NCBI GenBank assembly: GCA_017308235.1
Contig: JAFKFL010000015.1
Span: 62,001-126,000, forward strand
Reading direction: 5' to 3'
Length of the DNA: 64,000 nucleotides
Origin: Alphaproteobacteria bacterium
GTDB taxonomy: Bacteria; Pseudomonadota; Alphaproteobacteria; Reyranellales; Reyranellaceae
Positions within the stretch are counted from its first letter, which is position 1; each line of letters opens with the position of its first letter. The notes beneath the pieces were generated by a model, which did not search any database, was not told the DNA's origin, and saw only the letters and a program-made list of their open reading frames with translations. Below, in pieces: positions 60,084 to 62,889 of the stretch. The position numbers were made by a program, and so were the translations under genes.

Positions 60084-60154
60084 TCTTCCGGACCGCGAGC
60101 GTCTCGCTCGCTCATCCGGTGCATGAGCGAGCGAGACGCTCGCGGTCCGGAAGA
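60084..60154. repeat. perfect 32-bp inverted repeat, family A copy 2
   Basis: 32-base arms (60084-60115 and 60123-60154) match perfectly around a 7-base loop. The core TTCCGGACCGCGAGC is shared with 44630-44708. It fills the gap between the convergent ispE and ctaA-SEL1 genes, ending right at the stop codon of the latter, and would act as a very stable bidirectional terminator hairpin. Confidence 0.85.
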
Positions 60155-62482
60155 CTAACGCTTCGCGAGCGCTTGCTTGAGCGCGAGATAGAGGTCCCTC
60201 GACGGTTCGCCGGTTTCCGTGATCCCGGCATTCTTCTGGAAGTTCTTGATGGCGTTGCGCGTCATCGGCCCCAGGGCGCCGTCCGGCTTGTCCTTGAGCA
60301 GCTTGAGATCGAGCAGGGCCTGCTGGATGGCGCGCACCTGCTCGACCTTGTCGTTCGGCCAGGCGACTTCCGGCGCGTTGGATGTCGAAGAGAGGGTTTG
60401 GCCTGTCGGTGCCGAAGGTGCTGACGAAGATGCCGACGGCAAGGCGGGCGACGGCAATTGGCCTGGCCGCTGTGGCGATGTCGCCTCGACGATCTGCTTG
60501 ATCTCGCGTTGTCCCATGTCCTGCGCGCGCTGCAGTTCGACAGGCGTCATGACCCGGCGCAGGTTTTCCGAGCGGCGCGCGGCGTTCTTGGCAAGCGGCG
60601 TTTCCTTGTTGTCATGCGAGCGGCGTTCGAACTGCTCGGCCATGCCATACCAGGCGACGGCGGTCGCATTGTCCTTGGGTGCCGCATCGCCCTGTTCGTA
60701 GATGTCGCCCAACGCAAACATCGAGGCGGTCATGCCCTGATGCGCCGCCGCCAGCAGCAGCCTGACCGCTTCGCCGCCGTCGCGCGCCACGCCTTTGCCC
60801 TCGCGCAGCATCAGCGCGAGATTGTGCTCGGCGACCGGAAGGCCCTTGTCCGACGCGCGGCGGTACCAATCGGCGGCGCGCGTCGAGCTTCGTTCGACGA
60901 CAAAGCCACTTTCGTACATGACGCCGACATTGAACGCCGCTTCGGGGGAACCGAGCTCGGCGGCGCGCAGCATCCAGCCGGCGCCGGCCTGCGGATCCTT
61001 GGCGACACCGACACCGAGGATGAGGCGGCGCGACAGCTCCGCCATCGCCAGCAGATTATGGGCTTCGGCCTGGGCGCGAAGCTGTTCGATCGGCCATGCC
61101 GCCGGGTCTCCGGTCGGCGTCGCCTCCGCAGCACCCGGCTTGGGCGCCGAGGGGGCGGGAGGTGCCATTTCGGCAGCGCTCGGTGGCGGCGGTGGCTCGG
61201 TTGGCGCCGGCAGGGAAACGTCGCTGCCAAAGGCCGGCGGCCGTGCGACGGCGACGTTCTCCTTCTTGTCGCCCGGGGCCGCTGCCTCACGCCGTTCCAG
61301 CAGCGATGGCCACTTGAGGGCGATGAACGCAAAAGCGGCAACCACGACGACAGCCGCCAACAGACCGAGCAGCGCACGAGAGGAAGATGCGGGTGCTTTG
61401 CGCGCTGCCGACTTGTCCGCCGCCGATTTATCCGCCACCGACTTATCTGAAAGACTGCTCATCCCCGGGACAATAACCGAGAGGGCGCGCGCTGGAGAAG
61501 GCGCGGCACGGTGGCGCACGACGATCAGCGTCGTCAGCAGCAGGACCGCGCCGGCCTGGTGCATCGAGGCGAGCGCGATATCGACACCGCTCAGGATGGT
61601 GGCGACGCCGAGGCAGAATTGCACCAGGACCATGGCACCCGCGGCATAGGTCTCGGGCCGCCGCGCGCGCCAGGCCATCGCCAGCACACCCAGGGCCAGA
61701 AGCTTGGCGAGCCAGCGATGGATGAACTGCACCGTCGTGCCGTTCTCGGAGATGTTGATCCACCACGGTGAGCGGTCGAACATCCCGGGCGGGATCCAGT
61801 ATCCCGACATTGTGGGGAAGGTGTTGTGCGAGAGACCGGCGCGCAGGCCGGCCATCAACGCACCGAACGTCATCACCACGAACACGAAGGCCATCAGACC
61901 GGTGGCCTCGCGCCGCGTCTTGCGATCGTCGCGTCGGCTGCTCTGCGGGCCAAGCTCGAGGATCAGCCAGACCGTGTAGGCATAGAGCGCTACGGCGGCC
62001 AGCAGATGCGCGGCCAGGCGGTAGTGGCTCACCGAGGGGCGGTCGACCAGCCCCGAGGCGACCATCGCCCAGCCCAAAACGCCTTGGAGTCCGCCCAGGA
62101 CCAGCAGCGCCACAAGTCGCGGCTTGAGGCCAGGCGAGAGGCGTCCACTCAACCAGAACCAGAGGAGGGGTACGGCGACGACAAGGCCGATCAGCCGTCC
62201 CCACAGGCGATGAATGAATTCCAGCCAGTAGATCTGCTTGAACTGTGCAACGGTGAAATCGGAATTGACCAGCCGTCCCTGCGGCGAGGCGAGGTATTCC
62301 TTCAACTCCGCCTGCCAGGCCTGCTCGGTTATCGGCGGCACGACGCCGGTAACGGGCTTCCATTCGACCATCGACAGGCCGGACTCGGTCAGTCGCGTGA
62401 GCGCGCCGAGCACGATCATGACGAAGATCATCGCCGCAACGACGATCAGCCAGCTCCGCACAATGGGGGGAACGGTCTTCAT
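60155..62482 (-). CDS. ctaA: heme A synthase fused in frame to a SEL1/peptidoglycan-binding protein
   Basis: About 775 aa from ATG 62482. Residues 1-340 are a full CtaA: LTRLTESGLSMVEWKPVTG, LEFIHRLWGRLIGLV, NTFPTMSGYW, QFIHRWLAKLLALG and ASMHQAGAVLLL with the heme His residues. CtaA oxidises heme O to heme A for cytochrome aa3. After VIVPGM the frame continues, without stop, into SLSDKSVADKSAADKSAARK, a second TM anchor, a Pro-rich linker, several SEL1 repeats (for example AAFNVGVMYESGF) and a C-terminal peptidoglycan-binding domain (PDGALGPMTRNAIKNFQ). The second half looks like a separate gene whose start may be ATG 61462, which lacks a good RBS. So either a real fusion or overlapping genes. 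Confidence 0.82.
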   Translation of the reverse strand: MKTVPPIVRSWLIVVAAMIFVMIVLGALTRLTESGLSMVEWKPVTGVVPPITEQAWQAELKEYLASPQGRLVNSDFTVAQFKQIYWLEFIHRLWGRLIGLVVAVPLLWFWLSGRLSPGLKPRLVALLVLGGLQGVLGWAMVASGLVDRPSVSHYRLAAHLLAAVALYAYTVWLILELGPQSSRRDDRKTRREATGLMAFVFVVMTFGALMAGLRAGLSHNTFPTMSGYWIPPGMFDRSPWWINISENGTTVQFIHRWLAKLLALGVLAMAWRARRPETYAAGAMVLVQFCLGVATILSGVDIALASMHQAGAVLLLTTLIVVRHRAAPSPARALSVIVPGMSSLSDKSVADKSAADKSAARKAPASSSRALLGLLAAVVVVAAFAFIALKWPSLLERREAAAPGDKKENVAVARPPAFGSDVSLPAPTEPPPPPSAAEMAPPAPSAPKPGAAEATPTGDPAAWPIEQLRAQAEAHNLLAMAELSRRLILGVGVAKDPQAGAGWMLRAAELGSPEAAFNVGVMYESGFVVERSSTRAADWYRRASDKGLPVAEHNLALMLREGKGVARDGGEAVRLLLAAAHQGMTASMFALGDIYEQGDAAPKDNATAVAWYGMAEQFERRSHDNKETPLAKNAARRSENLRRVMTPVELQRAQDMGQREIKQIVEATSPQRPGQLPSPALPSASSSAPSAPTGQTLSSTSNAPEVAWPNDKVEQVRAIQQALLDLKLLKDKPDGALGPMTRNAIKNFQKNAGITETGEPSRDLYLALKQALAKR

Positions 62483-62889
62483 GGCGGCCGGACCTTGGGC
62501 GAAGCGGCTCGCCCCGTCATCAGGCATTTATGTCGCGAGGGGTGGTCGCTTGGCATCCCACCATGGGTGTCATCCCGAGGCGAAGCCGAGGGATCCTTGA
62601 TTAGGCGCCGCCAAAGGTCCCTCGCTGCGCTCGGGATGACACCGGTTTTTTACACCACGCTACCTCGGGCGGCGCCCGGCGAACCTCCGCTTACGCGCTT
62701 GAAGGCCCTCGTCCGCGGCAAGAACGCAGCGTCTGACATGCCGAATGTGCAAAACATTTTCCATATGCGACGGCCCATGGCCTACCTAAATTCATCGAGC
62801 CATCACTACCTTGCGCTCCCTTGGCTCCTTGGCTAATCGGTTCGCTTACGAACAATATTCACCCCTCGTTGCATCTGGACATTTCGACA
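62483..62889. other. intergenic region with repeat, upstream of the terminal flavoprotein gene
   Basis: 407 bases between divergent genes. The half near ctaA holds the palindromic repeat at 62566-62650. The rest (62651-62889) contains less GC-rich patches near 62750 and 62850 that could include a promoter, but no clear consensus, riboswitch or reading frame was found. Confidence 0.5.
62566..62650 (+). repeat. imperfect palindromic repeat, family C, with T-run
   Basis: Arms GGTGTCATCCCGAGG... (62566-62596) and ...CTCGGGATGACACC (62615-62643) are imperfect complements of about 29 bases; the motif GTCATCCCGAG is a common intergenic repeat in alphaproteobacteria. The second arm is followed by TTTTTT at 62645-62650, as in an intrinsic terminator, although no plus-strand gene ends before it. 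Confidence 0.65.

What the first reader, a model, noticed from the sequence alone, without database searches (positions are those of the whole stretch)
60155..62482. CtaA and a SEL1/peptidoglycan-binding protein in one open frame
The CtaA part is complete to its last heme-ligand helix, then continues without a stop into a second TM anchor and SEL1 plus peptidoglycan-binding domains. The internal ATG at 61462 has no good Shine-Dalgarno. Either these are fused to give a respiratory-heme enzyme with a cell-wall-facing tail, or a stop codon between two overlapping genes has been lost.
Basis: partly seen in the sequence, partly recalled or inferred. Interest (0 to 1): 0.58.

Follow-up and report, generated by a model that had tools for sequence, protein, structure and literature searches.

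The report
Fused heme-A synthase and Sel1 gene
In this bacterium one extra DNA letter has joined two neighbouring genes that nearly all of its relatives keep separate, so the enzyme that makes heme A appears to carry a long cell-wall-facing tail; it looks like a real but modest evolutionary event rather than a sequencing slip.

Summary
Window 62482-60155 (- strand) is one 775-codon frame: a complete CtaA/COX15 with eight predicted transmembrane helices, then a ninth helix, Sel1 repeats and a PG_binding_1 domain. In the same family the two genes are adjacent but separate: 41 of 69 loci examined share an ATGA stop/start overlap and only 2 of 69 are fused. Against its sister genomes the window has one extra base in CCCGGGG just before the Sel1 ATG, which puts that ATG in the CtaA frame and removes the CtaA stop. 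A sequencing error is unlikely, not excluded: 0 of 14 candidate frame breaks in about 100 kb of compared coding DNA were true within-gene breaks, both halves show purifying selection, and a second fusion of different shape arose independently in another genus. In both genomes the fused gene is the only CtaA detected. Known CtaA fusions are with CtaB; my searches found none with Sel1. A new variant of a known kind, of modest interest. No protein evidence exists.

The parts
60155..62482 (-). Fused open frame, 775 codons plus TAG stop
61463..62482 (-). CtaA/COX15 heme A synthase part, 340 codons, eight predicted transmembrane helices; E88, H91, H159, H255, H308 invariant among 24 aligned family members
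61463..61469 (-). Junction CCCGGGG: one base longer than in the nearest split relatives (G015 has CCGAGG before the ATG), which moves the downstream ATG into the ctaA frame
61460..61462 (-). ATG that starts the separate Sel1 gene in relatives; internal Met341 here
61316..61372 (-). Ninth hydrophobic segment (aa 371-389, Kyte-Doolittle mean 2.96), the anchor of the former Sel1 protein
   Evidence: model helix aa 367-401
60479..61090 (-). Sel1-repeat alpha solenoid, aa 465-668
60188..60343 (-). PG_binding_1 domain, aa 714-765
60084..60154 (.). Palindrome between the fused gene and the convergent neighbour; a dispersed repeat of this genome, possible two-way terminator

Best explanation
A genuine, lineage-specific gene fusion. 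The family ancestrally carries ctaA followed by a gene for a membrane-anchored, periplasmic Sel1/peptidoglycan-binding protein. In most genomes of this genus the two overlap by ATGA, the arrangement known for translational coupling by termination-reinitiation. In this lineage one inserted base just before the ATG removed the ctaA stop and put the downstream ATG in frame, so ribosomes should now read straight through and make one nine-helix protein. Topology would be kept (inferred): CtaA is taken to end in the cytoplasm, and the ninth helix carries the Sel1 and peptidoglycan-binding domains to the periplasm, as the separate protein would. Shown: the DNA architecture, the ancestral overlap, the one-base difference, two independent fusions, selection on both halves, and that it is the only CtaA detected. 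Inferred: a single polypeptide, topology, activity. Most likely effect: CtaA works as usual with a tethered envelope domain made 1:1.
For: One frame with all three domain families. 41 of 69 loci have the ATGA overlap in the Sel1 frame, 1 has GTGA, 19 have other separate layouts, 2 are fused, 5 had no Sel1 gene on the fetched stretch and 1 had a truncated ctaA. The one-base difference against sister genomes is at the junction. A second in-frame fusion, 706 codons, lies in G087 of another genus, in the same gene neighbourhood, while its congeners G088 and G090 are split. The CtaA tree needs two separate origins. dN/dS is 0.085-0.140 for the CtaA part and 0.283-0.318 for the Sel1 part, against 0.072-0.179 and 0.214-0.314 among split relatives. 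Only one COX15-CtaA match in G000 and one in G087, with three COX1-family genes in G000. The model gives eight CtaA helices plus a ninth. No true within-gene frame break in the survey.
Against: The fused state is seen in one genome of its genus; no second assembly of the species and no reads could be examined. The extra base lies in a C/G run, where indel errors are commonest. The second fusion has a much weaker ninth helix: none was called in G087 at the threshold used. The internal ATG is intact, so some separate Sel1 protein could still be made. No transcript or protein data.
Confidence: 0.68

Rival explanations
1. Assembly or sequencing error: one base was added in the C/G run, and the organism really has the usual ATGA-overlapping gene pair.
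For: Fused in one genome of the genus only; the extra base sits in CCCGGGG; both frames remain intact on either side, as an error would leave them.
Against: In 100,401 coding bases compared with G015 (75,840 with G002, 90,069 with G010) there were 14 candidate frame breaks. In 11, at least one side is clearly a wrong-frame match; the other 3 have a short unclear N-terminal piece, of which the one I read at DNA level is intergenic; 0 of 14 is a shown within-gene break. That bounds indel errors at roughly 3 per 100 kb. The junction also differs by a substitution, and other genomes show natural junction changes (shifted stops in G054, G049, G085).
Confidence: 0.2
2. Real insertion, but two products: the fusion plus separate Sel1 protein initiated at the internal ATG (61462).
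For: The ATG is intact, and GGGG lies directly before it.
Against: Predicted pairing (-4.5) is no better than chance positions and spacing is zero. Reinitiation needs an upstream stop at or very near the start (abstract of PMC10666635), and that stop is gone.
Confidence: 0.1
3. A damaged locus: the fusion is a recent mildly deleterious mutation that impairs CtaA or the Sel1 protein.
For: Rarity, 2 of 69 loci.
Against: The only CtaA detected in a genome with three COX1-family genes; both halves evolve as in split relatives; putative catalytic residues kept. The age of the insertion is unknown, so selection figures cannot settle it.
Confidence: 0.1

Closest known systems
CtaA-CtaB (heme A synthase - heme O synthase) fusions in bacteria and archaea (PMC9145763, PMC8239418, PMC12808453; passages read)
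   Same: CtaA fused to another protein in one frame
   Different: Partner there is the preceding enzyme of the pathway; here it is an anchored Sel1/peptidoglycan-binding protein with no known role in heme A synthesis
ATGA-overlapping, translationally coupled gene pairs (PMC6728339 passages, PMC10666635 abstract and one section)
   Same: Relatives keep exactly this 4-base overlap
   Different: Here the overlap has been turned into an in-frame joint
Human COA7, a Sel1-repeat cytochrome oxidase assembly factor (PDB 7mqz; PMC6505684 passages)
   Same: Sel1 solenoid (Foldseek E 2.1e-5); link to cytochrome oxidase by gene context
   Different: Better matches are generic bacterial Sel1 proteins; COA7 has 13 cysteines, the Sel1 half here has none
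Bacterial Sel1 plus PG_binding_1 envelope proteins (the separate gene in relatives, e.g. G015)
   Same: Same domains and order
   Different: Separate protein with its own N-terminal anchor

Membership tests
CtaA/COX15 heme A synthase | COX15-CtaA profile above cut-off, full length | tested here: met
   336 bits against cut-off 29.9, profile 2-321 of 322
CtaA/COX15 heme A synthase | Eight transmembrane helices | tested here: met
   Eight long helices before residue 326 in the model; Foldseek matches to heme A synthases 8aw5 and 6a2j
CtaA/COX15 heme A synthase | Conserved Glu and four heme-ligand His | tested here: met
   E88, H91, H159, H255, H308 invariant in 24 rows; assigning them to E57, H60, H123, H216, H278 of B. 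subtilis is from recall (E57, H60, H123, H278 are named in the passages)
CtaA/COX15 heme A synthase | Converts heme O to heme A | not testable with these tools
   needs spectroscopy or complementation
CtaA-CtaB fusion | Second domain is CtaB | tested here: not met
   Second part is Sel1 and PG_binding_1
COA7 | Cysteine-rich Sel1 protein (13 Cys, 10 conserved) | tested here: not met
   Only Cys of the fusion is C290, in CtaA; COA7 cysteines from passages
Translationally coupled overlapping pair | Stop and start overlap or nearly so | tested here: not met
   Met in 41 of 69 loci of the family but not in the window, where the stop is gone
Sel1/PG-binding envelope protein | Sel1 and PG_binding_1 profiles above cut-off with an anchor | tested here: met
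   82.7 and 46.2 bits against 30.7 and 23; hydrophobic segment aa 371-389

The most novel reading that the evidence does not exclude
The Sel1/peptidoglycan-binding protein is an undescribed partner of heme A synthase, an envelope-anchored assembly factor that works beside CtaA in cytochrome oxidase biogenesis in this family, as Sel1-repeat COA7 works in mitochondria. The conserved ATGA coupling and two independent fusions would be its traces: proteins that bind one another are the ones whose genes tend to overlap and fuse.
Probability: 0.2. Interest if true: 0.65.

Novelty: new variant of a known kind. Interest (0 to 1): 0.4.

Why it matters
It catches a fusion one base away from its ancestral state, with both states in sister species, and shows how a translationally coupled ATGA pair can become one protein by a single insertion. 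Two independent fusions of the same pair are a Rosetta-Stone hint that heme A synthase and a cell-wall-binding Sel1 protein act together, which is testable. How heme A is inserted into cytochrome oxidase after synthesis on CtaA is still open (PMC9145763, passage).

Tried and rejected
Long open frames as further fusions: many class-level CtaA matches had frames over 500 aa. I fetched eleven of them (nine without a stop in the match, two with one), plus G025; none has a C-terminal extension into Sel1, and in the longest ones the extra length lies upstream. Other listed long frames with stops inside the match were not fetched, and the listing was truncated, so this screen is partial. G053 (1559 aa) and G083 (710 aa) proved to be ordinary ATGA pairs.

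COA7 homology: rejected as membership, see above. Plasmid collection: 0 of 408 matching records cover 80% of the protein. A genome-contig scan gave 2 loci: G002's contig and a distant MAG labelled Sphingomonas with CtaA only. Alignment A1 placed split Sel1 rows against CtaA and was not used. Literature searches returned nothing; the two papers of one search were judged irrelevant from the listing.

Full report
What is there. The minus-strand frame 62482-60155 is open for 775 codons. Pfam places COX15-CtaA on aa 10-319, Sel1 repeats with aa 513-547 as the best of four stretches, and PG_binding_1 on aa 714-765. An AlphaFold2 model from a 24-row alignment shows eight CtaA helices (aa 6-31, 78-111, 119-142, 149-177, 187-216, 248-273, 276-297, 302-325), a low-confidence linker, a ninth helix (aa 367-401, itself of low to modest confidence), a confident Sel1 solenoid and a PG-binding domain; mean pLDDT 76.3, pTM 0.48. 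Foldseek matches the CtaA part to solved heme A synthases 8aw5 and 6a2j, and the rest to bacterial Sel1 proteins.

Relatives. A search of 75 genomes of the family matched 68 for CtaA at E <= 1e-60; the other 7 had no match and were dropped. One locus per matching genome, plus G025 of the same order, makes 69 loci. Of these, 41 have ctaA ending in TGA inside an ATGA overlap with the Sel1 frame, 1 has GTGA, 19 have other separate layouts, 2 are fused (window and G087), 5 had no Sel1 gene on the stretch fetched, and G016 has a truncated ctaA. Of those 5, the fetched stretch after the ctaA stop was only 92-694 bases in G017, G076 and G089; G025 has a Sel1/PG gene further downstream; G024 had no Sel1 match in 1.5 kb and only a CtaA match. 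So the pair is ancestral and normally split.

The change. In G015 the junction reads GTCCGAGGATGAGC and in the window GTCCCGGGGATGAGC: one base more plus a substitution. CtaA has 340 codons in the window and in G015, G002, G010 and G062. The insertion removes the TGA from the CtaA frame and puts the former start ATG in frame.

Error or evolution. I compared contig C2 of the genome with G015, G002 and G010 over 100,401, 75,840 and 90,069 aligned coding bases. Fourteen candidate frame breaks appeared. By codon-position substitutions, 11 have at least one side clearly in a wrong frame, 3 have a short unclear N-terminal piece, and none has both sides clearly in true frame. One of the unclear ones, read at DNA level, is an indel between divergent genes. 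The assembly is therefore not rich in indel errors, as far as this one contig shows. The CtaA tree places the window with G002 and G015 (support 100/99) and G087 with G088-G090, and needs two separate fusions. G087's fusion has a much shorter joint and the same neighbours; those neighbours (ETF-QO, TPR, ispE) are named from sequence by recall, not by a family search.

Function. Both fused genomes have a single COX15-CtaA match, and the window genome has three COX1-family genes. The CtaA half is thus probably needed and working. dN/dS (Nei-Gojobori) of both halves resembles split relatives. Overlapping pairs are enriched for subunits of heteromeric complexes (30.4% against 6.8% of pairs in E. 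coli; PMC10666635, one section read) and reinitiation needs very short distances (abstract). With the stop gone, coupling is replaced by read-through. The internal ATG has no good Shine-Dalgarno. I infer one polypeptide; this is not shown.

Known or new. CtaA-CtaB fusions are described. My searches for Sel1 with heme A synthase found no paper; a wider one gave two papers, neither holding Cox15 (listing only). The Sel1 half resembles COA7 in fold but lacks cysteines. I file it as a new variant of a known kind: a lineage-specific fusion of a conserved overlapping gene pair.

Against. One genome in the genus, no reads, extra base in a C/G run, no protein data, and a weak ninth helix in the independent case.

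Noticed in passing
window 60084-60154: Near-perfect palindrome; its 24-base arm has 33 matches (18 forward, 15 reverse, 0 in the reversed control) in the genome at up to 2 mismatches.
   Followed up: partly
window 62569-62595: A second dispersed repeat, GTCATCCCGAGG type, with 24 matches in the genome at up to 2 mismatches, 0 in the control.
   Followed up: partly
L018, L019, L086, L087, L091: In these relatives Sel1 is in the same frame as ctaA with one stop codon between the two; a single stop change would fuse them too.
   Followed up: no
window 61406-61447: A DKSVADKSAADKSA repeat lengthens the linker by about ten residues in the fused lineage compared with the four nearest relatives.
   Followed up: no
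L066, L010, L069, L018, L019, L083, L085, L086: The separate Sel1 proteins of several relatives carry an extra C-terminal stretch aligned like a second peptidoglycan-binding domain; the window has only one.
   Followed up: no
L020 (G024): One genome of the genus has ctaA without a Sel1 match in the next 1.5 kb.
   Followed up: no
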